DNA from: a virus
DNA length: 45,463 nt
IMG/VR virus record: IMGVR_UViG_3300028610_000788
Location: 1-45,463 of that record
Strand: one strand, 5' to 3'
Below, piece by piece: positions 104-45,020 of the stretch. Under the pieces are notes generated by a model. It saw only the letters and a list, made by a program, of their open reading frames with translations. It ran no database searches and was not told the DNA's origin. Both the position numbers and the translations under genes were made by a program. The first letter of the stretch is position 1. Each line of letters begins with the position of its first letter.

Positions 104-124
104 AATTTTTATTTTACCGCTGCA

Positions 125-433
125 CTATTGCAAACAAACAAGCTCGTGTTTAGTTATAGCATAATATAGATTTTGAATATCATGCAGGTACTTCCGAACA
201 CCTACACATACACCTTTATAGTGGAATACCATAACATTATCACAATAAGCCAATGTGACGCCATGCTTATCGTCATAAGGCAATCTATCTGACCAGTCCT
301 CTGTTATCATAATCGGTTTTAATTGCTTCCTGTAAAGGCTCCAATCTCTAATCATGTTTACATCCAGCTTAGTGGTGTGATCTCCGTACTCAAGCTCATT
401 TCCTATTCTTAAATCTGTTAATTCTAATTCCAT
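125..433 (-). CDS. Conserved small phage protein, unknown function
   Basis: This gene encodes 102 residues. The C-terminal half (YLHDIQNLYYAITKHEL) matches my memory of a small protein common in Bacteroidetes phages and prophages, which typically ends with a Leu-Gln-Asn-Leu-Tyr-Ala-Leu-Thr motif. The middle holds a PIMITEDW segment typical of the same family. No catalytic motif, signal peptide or membrane segment is visible. It lies in the leftward early run, between the junction-spanning HNH gene and a small membrane protein. The function is unknown; family recognition is from memory only. Confidence 0.75.
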   Translation of the reverse strand: MELELTDLRIGNELEYGDHTTKLDVNMIRDWSLYRKQLKPIMITEDWSDRLPYDDKHGVTLAYCDNVMVFHYKGVCVGVRKYLHDIQNLYYAITKHELVCLQ

Positions 434-1436: not shown

Positions 1437-2197
1437 ACGCATTTGATAAGTAAATCTCTCATCCATTCATAGTGCGATCCTCTAGCAGCAGACTCAGCAG
1501 ACTCAGCAGCAGACCAAGCAGCAGACTCAGCAGACCTAGCAGCAGACTCAGCAGACCTAGCAGCAGACCTAGCAGCAGACTCAGCAGCAGACCAAGCAGC
1601 AGACTCAGCAGCAGACCAAGCAGACCTAGCAGCAGACCAAGCAGCAGACTCAGCAGCAGACCAAGCAGCAGACTCAGCAGCAGACCAAGCAGCAGACTCA
1701 GCAGCAGACTCAGCAGACCTAGCAGCAGACCAAGCAGCAGACTCAGCAGCATCTTCATCTATGTTATCCATCTTAAACAGATTAGCGCACTGAATAACAG
1801 CTTTATATTGTTCTGAGTCCTTCTCGGTAAATGTTATCTGGCCTCTCTTTTTATCCATCAATAATTTATATTGAAAGTCTTTCCAAGATTGCTCCAAATC
1901 TTTTTTAGGACTTATCGCCTCTAATAACTGAACGGGAAACTTAATAGCCTTTTTCTCTGGAAGTCCTTCAAATATCCTCTCAGATACATGAACCAACCAC
2001 AAAGGAAGCTCCATCACCTTAGAGGCCTCGTTTAACGTATTGTCTTCTGCCTGTGTCATGCAGCCGAAAAAACAACCCTTAAATCCCTTCTTGGTTTTTT
2101 GTTCTTCGTCTATCCAACATCCCTGAATAAACATGTCTAAATCCTGGTGTTGTTGGGCTATCTTAAGCCACTTTTTCTTTTTTGTTTCTGTTTTCAT
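1430..2197 (-). CDS. Repeat protein with long Ser-Ala-Ala-X tract
   Basis: This gene encodes 255 residues. Residues 1-150 are ordinary sequence (WLKIAQQHQDLDMFIQGCW, then a Lys-rich mixed region) with no recognised domain. Residues 150-240 are almost wholly built from SAAE, SAAW, SAAR and SAE units, ending in a normal tail (HYEWMRDLLIKCVG). The units would form an amphipathic helix or a helical repeat stack with Trp, Glu and Arg on one face. I recall Ala-rich repeats of this style in other phage and Bacteroidetes proteins, but no function is known to me. The repeat units are multiples of three bases, so gain or loss of units keeps the frame. Confidence 0.8.
   Translation of the reverse strand: MKTETKKKKWLKIAQQHQDLDMFIQGCWIDEEQKTKKGFKGCFFGCMTQAEDNTLNEASKVMELPLWLVHVSERIFEGLPEKKAIKFPVQLLEAISPKKDLEQSWKDFQYKLLMDKKRGQITFTEKDSEQYKAVIQCANLFKMDNIDEDAAESAAWSAARSAESAAESAAWSAAESAAWSAAESAAWSAARSAWSAAESAAWSAAESAARSAARSAESAARSAESAAWSAAESAESAARGSHYEWMRDLLIKCVG
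1481..1752 (-). repeat. Tandem 9/12-bp minisatellite inside the repeat-protein gene
   Basis: About 270 bases consist of imperfect tandem 12-base units (on the plus strand AGCAGCAGACTC, AGCAGCAGACCA, AGCAGACCTAGC) and 9-base variants. The tract leaves several reading frames open on both strands, which explains long Leu-rich and Arg/Ser-rich shadow frames here. All unit lengths are multiples of three, so slippage would change protein length without frameshifts. Confidence 0.9.
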
Positions 2198-13785: not shown

Positions 13786-13841
13786 AATCTTTTCCCTTAG
13801 TAAAGCGGTAAGACACATTTATTAAGGGTTTCTACAAAGGC

Positions 13842-13876
13842 AAAAAGGGCTTCATTTGATTATGAGGCTCTTTTTT
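13842..13876 (+). terminator. Strong terminator of the rightward block (likely bidirectional)
   Basis: AAAAAGGGCTTCA pairs with TGAGGCTCTTTTT (13 pairs, two G-U), 8-base loop, then T6. A T run also follows on the other strand, so it could also stop leftward transcripts. Confidence 0.85.
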
Positions 13877-13929
13877 ATTGCCTGGTAGAAAACTATTTGG
13901 TGTCTTCAGCCTAGCGTATCCTTGTACAA

Positions 13930-40276: not shown

Positions 40277-41599
40277 CTATTTTCTATAATGTCCTTTTTG
40301 ATGGCGCTTAATCCACTCAAAAAAGAAAGCATTAGTCTCATACCTCACACAATCGAGGTGATCAGCCCTTTGATTGGCGTCATTCCTATTCTTTTTTAGT
40401 AGTGAGTTAAAAGCATCTACTTGAACGGTTCTCATGTCTCTACAGGTATTAGGGCATGTCTCAGGGTTTATAATCCAATCAGGGTGGTGTGTTAAAAGAT
40501 AGTTAACCTGGTCTTTAGAATTACTGTGCATTGGATTAGCGTAGGTCTTAATCTGTGCTTTTCTTAGCTTTAAACCCCTCTCAAGTCTCATGTAGTAACT
40601 CGCTCTGTCTCTACGCCCGAAGTCTCTTCTGTCACCCATCTTATCGCCTGTGATGGTTATAGAGTGGATCTTATCACCGTAATATTCTTTGATGTAGTCT
40701 ATGCCTTGTTCTAAGTCAGCGTCTTCTATCGTTGCCTCGTCAAACTGGTGACGATGAAACCCGTCTTTATCTTGCCAGATATGAGAAAAGATAAACCCAA
40801 AAGGATTAAGGTTAAAGTCAAGGCTTACAAATATGGGCTTATCTTCTTGATATATAGCCTTTAATGATTCGTGTTTAGGTTTTTCGTACCTCGTTGCAAA
40901 CGGCCTAGTCCCTGAGGCTTCGATAAATTCAGCATGTATCTCCTGCAATACCATTTGCTCATCCATTACCGCTATCTCGTCTTCTAATTGCTTGATGTCT
41001 TCAGCGTTCAATAGCGGATTGTCATAGCTAGATAGCTGGTAATTTTGGTAAGTGTCGTCCTCTAAGCCCTTTTGGTATAATTTATAGAAAATATGCTCAT
41101 CACCTGACTTAGTTACTTTCCCTTTCGGAACCCCAGCAGCTATAAGCTGAGACTCTGGAAAGTCCATTAACATAGGTAGTAACGCATTAGTATATAAGTA
41201 GTTGTTCTTTAGGATTATACCAGCTTCATTGAGGAATATTTTTTTATATCCAAAGCCCTCAATACTTTCTGGAGCGTCTGCACTTCTAAAGTCACAGTAA
41301 GCTTCTCCTATCTTTAAAACTTTCTTTTGGAGGTTCCAGGTGTATTCTATTTTATTCTCTCTTAAACAAGGCTCAAAGTACCTCTCAAAGTATCTATCTA
41401 TGTTGCCGTTGATGGTATCGACCCATAAAAGAGGGAATATCCCTTTGATCATCCATTTAATATAGGCTAAGGCTGCGCCGTGGGTTATTCCAGCCCTTCG
41501 TCCTTTTCTTACTATCTTGAACTTTTTGTCTTCGTTGAGAAAGAATACTTCCCTCTGTTTAGGAGTAAACCTTAGCCTAATCCTTTTTACGGTCTCCAA
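40277..41599 (-). CDS. terL: Terminase large subunit
   Basis: The 440-residue protein has an ATPase core with a Walker A-like loop (VRKGRRAGITHGAA, 30-43), Walker B (KKIFLNEAG, 119-127), and then a RNase-H-like nuclease domain from about 256 (PIFVSLDFNLNPFGF with Asp 261; TGDKMGDRRDFGRRD near 316-330; RADHLDCVRYET near 415-426). It cuts and pumps DNA into capsids. Start and the small-subunit stop overlap by 23 bases. The C terminus converges on the opposing HNH gene. Confidence 0.95.
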   Translation of the reverse strand: METVKRIRLRFTPKQREVFFLNEDKKFKIVRKGRRAGITHGAALAYIKWMIKGIFPLLWVDTINGNIDRYFERYFEPCLRENKIEYTWNLQKKVLKIGEAYCDFRSADAPESIEGFGYKKIFLNEAGIILKNNYLYTNALLPMLMDFPESQLIAAGVPKGKVTKSGDEHIFYKLYQKGLEDDTYQNYQLSSYDNPLLNAEDIKQLEDEIAVMDEQMVLQEIHAEFIEASGTRPFATRYEKPKHESLKAIYQEDKPIFVSLDFNLNPFGFIFSHIWQDKDGFHRHQFDEATIEDADLEQGIDYIKEYYGDKIHSITITGDKMGDRRDFGRRDRASYYMRLERGLKLRKAQIKTYANPMHSNSKDQVNYLLTHHPDWIINPETCPNTCRDMRTVQVDAFNSLLKKNRNDANQRADHLDCVRYETNAFFFEWIKRHQKGHYRK

Positions 41600-41861
41600 T
41601 GACTTCTTCTTCTATGATGATTCTAACGGTGCCTGTTTGCTCTTGTTCGCCCCTTGATAACTTTGGCTTGTGGAACTCTAAAAGATTGGTAAAAGCGTTA
41701 ACGAATGCAGATCCCTCTAATTTATTGAGTTCTTTTTCGAACTTAGCTAATCCTGAATTAAGACAATATTGAGAGAAAGCTTCCCATTGCGCAGTCTTCT
41801 TGTTCTTGGCGCCTTTGCCTCGGCCACCCTTCTTTTCATGTCCTTCTTTGAACTTTGTCAC
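41577..41861 (-). CDS. terS: Terminase small subunit (putative)
   Basis: The 94-residue protein starts with a basic segment (KFKEGHEKKGGRGKGAKNKK) of the type seen in Gly/Lys-rich small terminases, then a helical core (WEAFSQYCLNSGLAKFEKEL, LEFHKPKLSRGEQEQTGTVR). Its place directly before the large subunit with overlap fits a DNA-recognising small subunit. It binds the pac or cos site. Sequence evidence is modest. Confidence 0.75.
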   Translation of the reverse strand: MTKFKEGHEKKGGRGKGAKNKKTAQWEAFSQYCLNSGLAKFEKELNKLEGSAFVNAFTNLLEFHKPKLSRGEQEQTGTVRIIIEEEVIGDRKKD

Positions 41862-41949
41862 TGTATTTCACTAAGATAGTGCGAATAGGTCTTTTAGGTT
41901 TTGTTGATAGCTTGTGTCTGTTATTTACGATGGTCACCCCTTAAAGTTA

Positions 41950-41990
41950 CAAAAAAAAGAGGAACCACGCATATCAACGGCTCCTCTAAT
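41950..41990 (-). terminator. Strong leftward terminator
   Basis: Minus strand AGAGGAGCC (41987-41979) pairs with GGTTCCTCT (41966-41958), 9 pairs with one G-U, 12-base loop, then eight U. It ends leftward transcription from the early region before the terminase genes and lies 5' (on the plus strand) of the RNA candidate. Confidence 0.88.
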
Positions 41991-42038
41991 TTTATGTATT
42001 CCTGAGATAAGAATGGGTTAAAGTTAGTAAAGTTTAGT

Positions 42039-42330
42039 TATCTTTGCAAAGTATTGTGCGGTTGTATGAATTGTACCGCCCTAAAACAAAAACAACCCTG
42101 AGATAAGATACTCTAAAGTCCCGCAATGTCTACAAGCTTGACAACGGGCAATGCATATCGAAAGATAATCATAGAGTAAACGAAGACGCCTAAGCCGAAA
42201 GGCTGAAGTAAATAAGAAGAGGTAGCAGACGGAAGTGCTTATTATTCAGGAGTAGCTTGTGCTAGAGTGCGTGTTTCTCTAAATGCAGCATAAAAGCTTT
42301 CTTTACTCCAAACTATAAATACAAAGTAAG
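42039..42330 (+). ncRNA. Candidate structured non-coding RNA, unclassified
   Basis: No convincing protein gene is found between 41870 and 42473. On the plus strand, TATCTTTG (42039-42046, a perfect -7 box with a weak -33) is followed by paired elements: GCGGT/ACCGC (42058-42062/42075-42079), TACTCTA/TAGAGTA (42109-42115/42172-42178) enclosing CCCG/CGGG (42120-42123/42145-42148) with TGTC/GACA inside, TATC-GAAA-GATA (42156-42167), AGCC-GAAA-GGCT (42193-42204), AATAAG/CTTATT (42211-42216/42238-42243) and GGAGTA/TACTCC (42249-42254/42304-42309). GAAA tetraloops only make sense on this strand. A group I intron core was sought and not found. Confidence 0.45.
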
Positions 42331-42334
42331 CAAA

Positions 42335-42406
42335 ATGAATAACCAATACCCAATGATCATTCCTAAGCAGAGGTATGTTAACTCCAGGTTGTTAGATATT
42401 ACCTGA
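42335..42406 (+). CDS. Possible 23-codon peptide after the RNA candidate
   Basis: An ATG at 42335 after an A-rich leader (AAAGTAAGCAAA) opens MNNQYPMIIPKQRYVNSRLL and then DIT, ending in TGA. The composition looks protein-like, so it might be a leader peptide or a degraded gene, but nothing confirms it. A following hairpin CAGGT/ACCTG (about 42384-42404) overlaps its end. Confidence 0.25.
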   Translation: MNNQYPMIIPKQRYVNSRLLDIT

Positions 42407-42472
42407 AAACACCATTTCATTATCTTTTGGCAGATCTGCATTCATCTTCGAAGTTAGTCTTTTTGTTTTGTA
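42407..42472. other. Short intergenic stretch, nothing recognised
   Basis: About 65 bases between the plus-strand RNA region and the end of the HNH gene. It holds a palindrome (GCAGATCTGC) and a T-rich end, but no clear terminator for the rightward RNA. Confidence 0.4.
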
Positions 42473-42991
42473 TTAGTGAAATCGTGATATATTTGGATGT
42501 AAAGTTCCGTTCTTAATAAGCTCAATAGTCCTTTTCCCTCTATCGTATAGCGTTGCTATTTCCTTACAAGAGCACCCTTCGTCCAAAAGATGTTTAATTT
42601 CTATTACTTGACTTTTAGTAAGCTCCTTGTACCCCTTTCTCCTTTTAGAAAAATCTATGAGTCCGCTTGCGTGAGCATGTTTCATGTTTTCCTTATGAGT
42701 GCACCATTCGAGATTTTCAACTCGATTATCGTTCTTTACGCCGTTCTTATGATTAACCTCATGCTTGTTGTATGGATTTGGAATAAATGTAATGGCTATA
42801 AGCCTGTGAGAAGTAATTGTTCTGCGATAAAGCCTGACCTGTAAATAGCCGTGGGCATCTTTAGATTGATTCATTTTAAAGAACCCCTTTGTTCTAGTAG
42901 AATAAATGTTTCCTTTGCGGTCGGCGTAATAGTGGGAATTTCCTTCTAATGGAATTAATCGTAACTTTGGCATGTCTTTGATTTTAAGCAT
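42473..42991 (-). CDS. HNH homing endonuclease
   Basis: Start taken at the ATG at 42991 (MLKIKDMPKLRLIPLEGNSH); a TTG at 43024 overlapping the previous stop is an alternative. The N-terminal strand region (YYADRKGNIYSTRTKG) leads to the HNH centre (HRLIAITFIPNPYNKHEVNH, then KNGVKNDNRVENLEWCTHKE). The C-terminal part is a helix-turn-helix (LLDEGCSCKEIATLYDRGKR). It belongs to the same family as the junction-spanning HNH and the one at 10930. Confidence 0.85.
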   Translation of the reverse strand: MLKIKDMPKLRLIPLEGNSHYYADRKGNIYSTRTKGFFKMNQSKDAHGYLQVRLYRRTITSHRLIAITFIPNPYNKHEVNHKNGVKNDNRVENLEWCTHKENMKHAHASGLIDFSKRRKGYKELTKSQVIEIKHLLDEGCSCKEIATLYDRGKRTIELIKNGTLHPNISRFH

Positions 42992-43020
42992 GTTAAAGAT
43001 ACGAAATGGCTCTGTCTCTA

Positions 43021-43458
43021 TCAAGATTCAGGGCCTTTCTTTTCCCTAAAAATATCTTCTGGATTAATGGGTGGGCCAATTTCACTTGGTAGCCTAAAAT
43101 AATGCTTGAAGGTTTCGAAATCGTATTGCTTTGCCATGTGCTGAACACTTTTTAAATAATCGTCAGTCTTCCCTTCCTCCGCTGAAGGCTTTTGTTCTTT
43201 ATTCTCTGTAGGCAGGGGCCCGTATTCCCTTAACAGATCAATAACGCTTTCCTCTCTGAAGTAGTTAATGTTGTTTTCTTCATCATACCAATCGACATCC
43301 TGATTAGCTGTTACATAAATAAATTCTGTTATGCTCTCGGTGCTTTCTTTTGTTAAGGGAGGGGAGGAAAACAAGGCTTCAATTAATTTTATTTTAGATT
43401 CTAAGTGGTTGCCTGAACACAATATTTCTCGTAATCCGATTTCTGTTTCTCTCTTCAT
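43021..43458 (-). CDS. Unknown protein (145 aa)
   Basis: I start at the ATG at 43458 (MKRETEIGLREILCSGNHLE). Upstream codons derive from repeat copy A. The protein is helical and charged, with a C-terminal acidic/proline part (PSAEEGKTDDYLKSVQHM, LPSEIGPPINPEDIFREK). No domain was recognised. It may be an early regulatory or host-takeover protein. Confidence 0.65.
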   Translation of the reverse strand: MKRETEIGLREILCSGNHLESKIKLIEALFSSPPLTKESTESITEFIYVTANQDVDWYDEENNINYFREESVIDLLREYGPLPTENKEQKPSAEEGKTDDYLKSVQHMAKQYDFETFKHYFRLPSEIGPPINPEDIFREKKGPES

Positions 43459-43486
43459 AGTTTGTTTCTTGTTGATTATCATTGTT

Positions 43487-43558
43487 TTAGGGCGATTACT
43501 TCGTAACATTCTCTCACTACAATACCCTACGGGTGATTTTCGTATCGATCATTATCGC
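43487..43558 (-). repeat. Early-operon two-hairpin repeat, copy A
   Basis: Minus strand: CGATAATGATCGATACG, AAAATC, hairpin ACCC-GTA-GGGT (43534-43524), ATTGTAGTGAGAGAATG, hairpin TTAC-GAA-GTAA, ATCGCCCTAA. It lies between the gene ending at 43568 and the gene starting at 43458. Flanks match copy B nearly exactly while stems differ. Confidence 0.8.
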
Positions 43559-43567
43559 AAAAGTAAA

Positions 43568-44968: not shown

Positions 44969-44992
44969 GATGTGGGTTTTGTTATTAAATTA

Positions 44993-45020
44993 TTAGGGCA
45001 ATTCCTTCGGAACGTTGGCT
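44993..45020 (-). repeat. Early-operon repeat, half copy E
   Basis: Minus strand AACGTTCC-GAA-GGAATTGCCCTAAT: only the second hairpin (TTCC-GAA-GGAA) and the following tail match the other copies. It lies just after the stop codon of the HNH gene (45025). Confidence 0.65.

What the first reader, a model, noticed from the sequence alone, without database searches (positions are those of the whole stretch)
42039..42330. Gene-free, highly structured plus-strand RNA candidate beside the terminase genes
About 600 bases between early and late modules lack a gene. On the plus strand a perfect TAnnTTTG box is followed by at least six helices, two closed by GAAA tetraloops and one long-range 7-bp helix enclosing a nested hairpin. 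This density of strand-specific structure is what large phage-borne structured RNAs show. A group I intron core and tmRNA features were sought and not found, so it may be an undescribed RNA class.
Basis: partly seen in the sequence, partly recalled or inferred. Interest (0 to 1): 0.78.

Follow-up and report, generated by a model that had tools for sequence, protein, structure and literature searches.

The report
Undescribed structured RNA in phage and plasmids
A gene-free stretch of a virus that probably infects Bacteroidota carries what looks like a small folded RNA, and unnamed relatives of it sit beside anti-virus defence genes on three bacterial plasmids; its job is unknown, and a role in conflicts between viruses, plasmids and their hosts would be worth testing.

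Summary
The 611-nt gap (41862-42472) is gene-free. Folding energy on the plus strand equals shuffled sequence, and the TAnnTTTG box alone is common. What settles it is homology. Window 42111-42237 (+) matches unannotated intergenic DNA on three Chryseobacterium plasmids at 71-73% identity. The alignment score is 73, against a best of 37 in 500 shuffles; the reverse strand scores 24. A covariance model built from the plasmids alone finds 42107-42241 (+) as the only hit in the window (54.8 bits, E 1.9e-12). Two plasmids and the phage share TATCTTTG upstream. Indels break every reading frame. Rfam 15 has no match to phage or plasmid copies.

It is therefore most likely a stand-alone structured RNA gene of about 260 nt, of a class I did not find described. 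Two plasmid copies lie immediately beside Druantia III-like and Gabija genes. A trans-acting role in phage-plasmid-host conflict is my best guess (about 35%); function is untested.

Weak points: only four sequences, three near-identical, and no transcript data. The two GAAA loops are not conserved in the plasmids.

The parts
42039..42046 (+). TATCTTTG, match to the Bacteroidota -7 promoter box TAnnTTTG
   Evidence: Sequence; same box upstream of the homologues L027 and L031; motif described in PMC7366714. No -33 TTG; motif common by chance.
42052..42315 (+). Inferred RNA gene, about 260 nt; both ends estimated
   Evidence: 5' end inferred from the -7 box; 3' end inferred from the last conserved block (GCATAAAA) and the following T-rich stretch. 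No transcript data.
42107..42241 (+). Conserved structured core
   Evidence: Plasmid-only covariance model R3: 54.8 bits, E 1.9e-12, only hit in window; blastn 71-73% identity over 42111-42237.
42109..42115 (+). Helix H1, 5' strand TACTCTA (pairs with 42172-42178 TAGAGTA)
   Evidence: CTCTCT/AGAGAG in plasmids; compensatory changes; pair probability 0.49-0.84 in the phage alone.
42172..42178 (+). Helix H1, 3' strand TAGAGTA
   Evidence: As above.
42120..42148 (+). Helix H2 CCCG/CGGG with inner GTC/GAC; sequence CCCGCAATGTCT..TTGACAACGGG nearly invariant
   Evidence: All pairs present in all four sequences, no variation.
42156..42167 (+). Hairpin H3 TATC-GAAA-GATA
   Evidence: TAAA-CTTA-TTTA in C. 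shandongense; not well formed in the other two plasmids.
42188..42223 (+). Helix H5 GCCT/AGGT enclosing hairpin H4 AGCC-GAAA-GGCT (42193-42204)
   Evidence: CCCA/TGGG and AGCA-AAT-TGCT in plasmids; 3 pairs changed on both sides; depends on a 1-nt shift relative to the structure-blind alignment. H5 pair probability is only 0.01 in the phage fold.
42224..42239 (+). Hairpin H6 AGCA-GACGGAAG-TGCT; loop GACGGAAG conserved
   Evidence: CGCA...TGtCG in plasmids, one pair changed on both sides.
42249..42309 (+). 3' domain, GGAGTA...TACTCC with inner hairpins; divergent from the plasmids
   Evidence: Phage fold -16.7 kcal/mol; plasmid counterparts weak. Role inferred.
41958..41987 (-). Intrinsic terminator on the opposite strand (11-bp stem, then 8 T); probably ends the leftward transcript before terS; not part of the RNA
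   Evidence: fold z-score -4.2.
41577..41861 (-). Terminase small subunit; start intact
   Evidence: 56% identical to L004, 49% to L005, which begin at the same place.
42473..43024 (-). HNH endonuclease, probable free-standing homing endonuclease
   Evidence: PF13392 E 2.3e-11; phrog_59 E 1.3e-40.

Best explanation
The plus strand of 42039-42315 is a stand-alone gene for a structured non-coding RNA of about 260 nt. It belongs to a family, not described as far as I could find, that is also carried on Chryseobacterium plasmids, where it is about 350 nt long with a larger 5' domain. It is inserted against the direction of the surrounding phage genes, like a moron, and appears to have its own promoter. 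Shown here: homology on the same strand, conserved helices with compensatory changes, absence of any conserved reading frame, and absence from Rfam. Inferred: that it is transcribed, and its exact ends. Mechanism, inferred (about 35% likely): the RNA acts in trans, through its conserved loops (CAATGTC...TTGACAA and GACGGAAGTG) presented by the H1/H2 and H6 hairpins, by binding a host or rival-element protein. It would help its carrier in conflict with other mobile elements, either as part of a defence or counter-defence function or as a decoy. The reason is that plasmid copies lie in defence islands, two of them directly beside Druantia III-like and Gabija genes, and the phage carries a divergent copy. 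The confidence given is for the RNA family being real, not for this mechanism.
For: Homology: blastn E 8e-4 to 3e-3 in 7.3 Gb and 1.3e-8, 9.8e-8 and 1.7e-5 in the three plasmids alone. Local alignment 73 against a shuffle mean of 23 and maximum of 37; wrong strand 24. Three plasmids are 91-96% identical over about 350 nt in two different gene contexts, with mostly unalignable flanks. Structure: one search gives 95.7% of cells paired (42-44% when slid), 12 pairs changed on both sides, 0 of 500 shuffles; structure-blind alignment keeps H1 with 5 double changes. H1, H2 and H4 are in the phage fold and in the C. oryzae fold, each computed alone. Plasmid-only model finds the locus as the only hit in the window. 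Conserved -7 box. Non-coding: indels of 1, 2 and 4 nt between relatives and no shared ORF. Defence neighbours: DruE3 2692 bits, DruH3 E 8.5e-39, GajA E 1e-194, GajB E 1.4e-148.
Against: Folding energy is no better than shuffled in the phage and worse in the plasmid (z +1.75). Only two diverged lineages are known, so each compensatory change is one event. H4-H6 need a 1-nt shift from the plain alignment, R3's structure was drawn with the phage in view, and H1 lies in a CTCTCT repeat whose register can slip. C. balustinum lacks the TATCTTTG box. Defence islands are crowded, so adjacency may be incidental. No transcript evidence.
Confidence: 0.82

Rival explanations
1. The conserved stretch works as DNA, for example a packaging (cos/pac) site beside terS, or a recombination or transfer site on the plasmids.
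For: It lies between an HNH gene and terS; HK97-like phages have an HNH gene next to terminase and cos (PMC10448857). A 12-nt direct repeat CCTGAGATAAGA at 42001 and 42097 (1.8% of shuffles). A recombinase gene lies near all three plasmid copies.
Against: Base changes are compensatory in helices, which a protein-binding DNA site does not need. A promoter-like box is shared. The 12-nt repeat is outside the conserved core and not seen in the plasmids. The plasmids have no terminase among the genes listed.
Confidence: 0.08
2. It is a cis-acting leader RNA, for example of the WYL regulator gene on the plasmids.
For: In C. balustinum and C. oryzae the element lies about 330 nt upstream of a WYL gene on the same strand.
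Against: In C. shandongense the nearby genes are divergent and there is no WYL gene. In the phage the downstream plus strand has no gene.
Confidence: 0.06
3. It is ordinary AT-rich spacer, and the helices are chance.
For: MFE equals shuffles; genome rank about 30%; no homologue in phage records or in the viral relatives examined.
Against: Alignment score against plasmids far above 500 shuffles; plasmid-only model hit E 1.9e-12.
Confidence: 0.03
4. A small protein is encoded on either strand.
For: Minus-strand open stretches of 40-59 codons exist in the phage and plasmids.
Against: A 1-nt indel between near-identical plasmids and several 1-, 2- and 4-nt indels against the phage break the frame. 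No Pfam or PHROG match to the phage stretches.
Confidence: 0.02

Closest known systems
ROOL and GOLLD RNAs (large phage/prophage RNAs of unknown function)
   Same: Stand-alone structured non-coding RNA on a phage, function unknown (PMC12286853).
   Different: Much smaller, about 260-350 nt (GOLLD often exceeds 800 nt); no Rfam match; no tRNA in the window; also on defence-island plasmids.
Racr RNA anti-CRISPRs
   Same: Small RNA carried by phages and plasmids that acts in host-element conflict (PMC10651486).
   Different: Racrs are solitary CRISPR repeats; this is a multi-helix RNA of about 260 nt, and no link to a CRISPR system was shown.
Group I introns and HNH-associated mobile RNAs
   Same: Structured RNA next to an HNH gene and a terminase gene.
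   Different: No Rfam intron match; terS and terL are intact; the HNH gene is on the opposite strand and none is listed directly beside the plasmid copies.

Membership tests
Any Rfam 15 family | Score at or above gathering threshold, phage copy | tested here: not met
   best sub-threshold match 22.2 bits against a cut-off of 94.4.
Any Rfam 15 family | Score at or above gathering threshold, plasmid copies | tested here: not met
   none.
tmRNA / tRNA | ARAGORN detection | tested here: not met
   zero genes in the window.
Group I intron | Interrupts a gene; conserved catalytic core | tested here: not met
   No Rfam match; neighbouring terS and terL align to relatives from their first residues.
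ROOL / GOLLD | Match to the family covariance model | tested here: not met
   No gathering-level Rfam match.
Retron non-coding RNA | Reverse transcriptase gene directly beside it | tested here: not met
   Plasmid gene tables: none adjacent; the only listed RT, in C. oryzae, is about 11 kb away. PLSDB tables are incomplete.
Type III toxin-antitoxin RNA | Tandem repeats beside a toxin gene | tested here: not met
   No tandem repeats in the gap; no toxin gene recognised adjacent in the phage.
Racr (CRISPR-repeat mimic) | Similarity to a CRISPR repeat | not tested
   No CRISPR repeat set was available.
Homologous family with the Chryseobacterium plasmid RNA | Same strand, alignable core, conserved helices | tested here: met

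The most novel reading that the evidence does not exclude
A new class of mobile structured RNA in Bacteroidota works in the arms race itself: plasmids carry it in defence islands, where it supports or regulates immunity, and phages carry a divergent copy as an RNA counter-defence (decoy or mimic), extending RNA-based anti-defence beyond CRISPR.
Probability: 0.2. Interest if true: 0.92.

Novelty: new variant of a known kind. Interest (0 to 1): 0.7.

Why it matters
It would add an RNA class absent from Rfam that is shared between a phage and defence-island plasmids of Bacteroidota. Known phage RNAs such as ROOL and GOLLD still have no function; this one comes with a genetic context (Druantia-like and Gabija neighbours) that makes a specific role directly testable. 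It also shows that folding energy can miss a conserved RNA: neither the phage nor the plasmid copy folds better than shuffled sequence.

Tried and rejected
Folding-energy z-scores, sliding-window z-scores, entropy and stem counts gave no excess and had pushed me towards rejection until the plasmid search. Rfam at permissive E-value gave only chance matches. DNA of the gap against phage records, terminase and HNH relatives and an exact 24-mer in viral contigs found nothing. Codon statistics and domain searches of the longest open stretches gave no gene. A weak hit of the repeated leader element (see noticed in passing) at 42056-42093 (+) was at chance level. A Flammeovirga plasmid hit (E 3) was not supported by the covariance model. 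An nhmmer run printed nothing and was not used.

Full report
SETTING. The window is a virus record whose first and last 62 bases are identical, and an HNH gene reads across the join, so it is a circularly closed genome of about 45.4 kb. Almost all genes run leftwards. The finding lies between an HNH gene (42473-43024, -) and the small terminase gene (41577-41861, -). The TAnnTTTG motif and the plasmid relatives point to a Bacteroidota host; this is inference.

CHECK OF THE OBSERVATION. The gap is gene-free. The features named are present, but by themselves most are what chance gives: MFE z-score -0.03, structure measures at about the 25-30th percentile of the genome, TAnnTTTG at its expected frequency, long stems at P 0.14. 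Two GAAA hairpins in one 292-nt stretch are rare, but this was noticed after the fact. The strongest single-sequence RNA signal in the gap is on the other strand: an intrinsic terminator at 41987-41958 (-), which probably ends leftward transcription before terS.

HOMOLOGUES. Searches of phage records and of viral relatives found nothing. A search of plasmids with 42090-42300 found two Chryseobacterium plasmids matching 42111-42237, and one of these found a third. All matches are intergenic and unannotated. Against the three plasmids alone the E-values are 1.3e-8, 9.8e-8 and 1.7e-5. The local alignment score of the gap against C. oryzae is 73, against a mean of 23 and a maximum of 37 in 500 dinucleotide shuffles, and 24 for the reverse strand. 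Among themselves the plasmid copies are 91-96% identical over about 350 nt, with mostly unrelated flanks in C. shandongense.

STRUCTURE. In plain MAFFT alignments, made without structure, six of its seven pairs are kept and five of them through changes on both sides; a fourth setting with a low gap penalty misaligned it. Inside it CCCG/CGGG and GTC/GAC are invariant. Downstream, GCCT/AGGT becomes CCCA/TGGG, AGCC-GAAA-GGCT becomes AGCA-AAT-TGCT, and AGCA/TGCT becomes CGCA/TG(t)CG. These three need a one-base shift from the plain alignment. On the model-fitted alignment, 95.7% of cells pair (42-44% when partners are slid), 12 of 29 pairs change on both sides, and none of 500 shuffles reaches this. 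Caveats: the alignment leans towards the structure, I drew the structure with the phage in view, and three of the four sequences are close relatives. Independently of that, H1, H2 and H4 appear in the folds of the phage alone and of the C. oryzae plasmid alone. A covariance model built only from the plasmids finds 42107-42241 (+) as the single hit in the window at 54.8 bits, E 1.9e-12; the next best locus in about 200 kb of other sequence scored 12.9 bits.

TRANSCRIPTION AND CODING. TATCTTTG lies upstream in the phage, C. oryzae and C. shandongense; C. balustinum lacks it. The box is the -7 element of Bacteroidota promoters (PMC7366714). Because the motif is common, its shared position is support, not proof. 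Indels of 1, 2 and 4 nt between relatives and the lack of a shared ORF argue against a protein.

NEIGHBOURS OF THE PLASMID COPIES. In C. balustinum the element precedes WYL, DruH3-like and DruE3-like genes (Druantia type III) and a type I methyltransferase. In C. shandongense it is divergent from GajA and GajB (Gabija), with restriction and Abi genes nearby. In C. oryzae it precedes WYL, DUF2130 and a type I restriction-modification locus. Two unrelated defence systems beside the same RNA suggest a link to defence islands, but such islands collect many genes and three plasmids are few.

HOW IT MAY WORK. Shown: a conserved, strand-specific RNA fold shared by a phage and plasmids. Inferred: an independent transcript. 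Guess, about 35%: a trans-acting RNA whose conserved loops bind a protein in conflicts between mobile elements and hosts. Phages are known to use RNA mimics against CRISPR (PMC10651486), so the principle exists, but this RNA was not tested against CRISPR repeats and is not filed as a Racr.

COMPARISON WITH KNOWN FAMILIES. No Rfam 15 family reaches its threshold in the phage or plasmid copies. ROOL, GOLLD, tmRNA and group I introns fail tests done here. Paper searches found no description, but the library is partial. I rate it a new family of the known kind 'mobile-element structured RNA of unknown function'.

Noticed in passing
window 43478-43560, 655-737, 1356-1438, 2451-2532 (all -): A repeated element of about 80 nt lies upstream of small leftward genes, with compensatory changes between copies (GCGAT/ATCGC versus GGGAT/ATCCC; 7 of 19 pairs changed on both sides). 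No Rfam match for the copy tested and no pattern match in viral or genome contigs: possibly a second undescribed RNA element.
   Followed up: partly
window about 118-133 (-) and 44984-45017 (-): A fifth copy of that element appears to be split by an HNH gene that reads across the circular join: the halves keep the outer helix (GCAAT/ATTGC) and the 3' hairpin GTTCC-GAA-GGAAT. The HNH gene seems to have inserted into the element's central hairpin.
   Followed up: partly
window 1460-1780: A dense 9- and 12-nt repeat array (AGCAGACTC, AGCAGACCA and similar) inside the leftward ORF 1430-2197.
   Followed up: no
window 42001-42012 and 42097-42108: Exact 12-nt direct repeat CCTGAGATAAGA, 1.8% of shuffles; a possible terminase-binding or packaging site.
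   Followed up: no
window 13801-13920: Strongest fold signal of the genome scan (z -6.0), between converging genes; probably a bidirectional terminator.
   Followed up: no
L027 780-870 and the matching parts of L026 and L031: A second block conserved in all three plasmids downstream of the RNA (AGGGTT..TCCCTTTAT, TTAAATGCAGTTATAAAAAC.TGTCA), absent from the phage; it may belong to the plasmid element.
   Followed up: no
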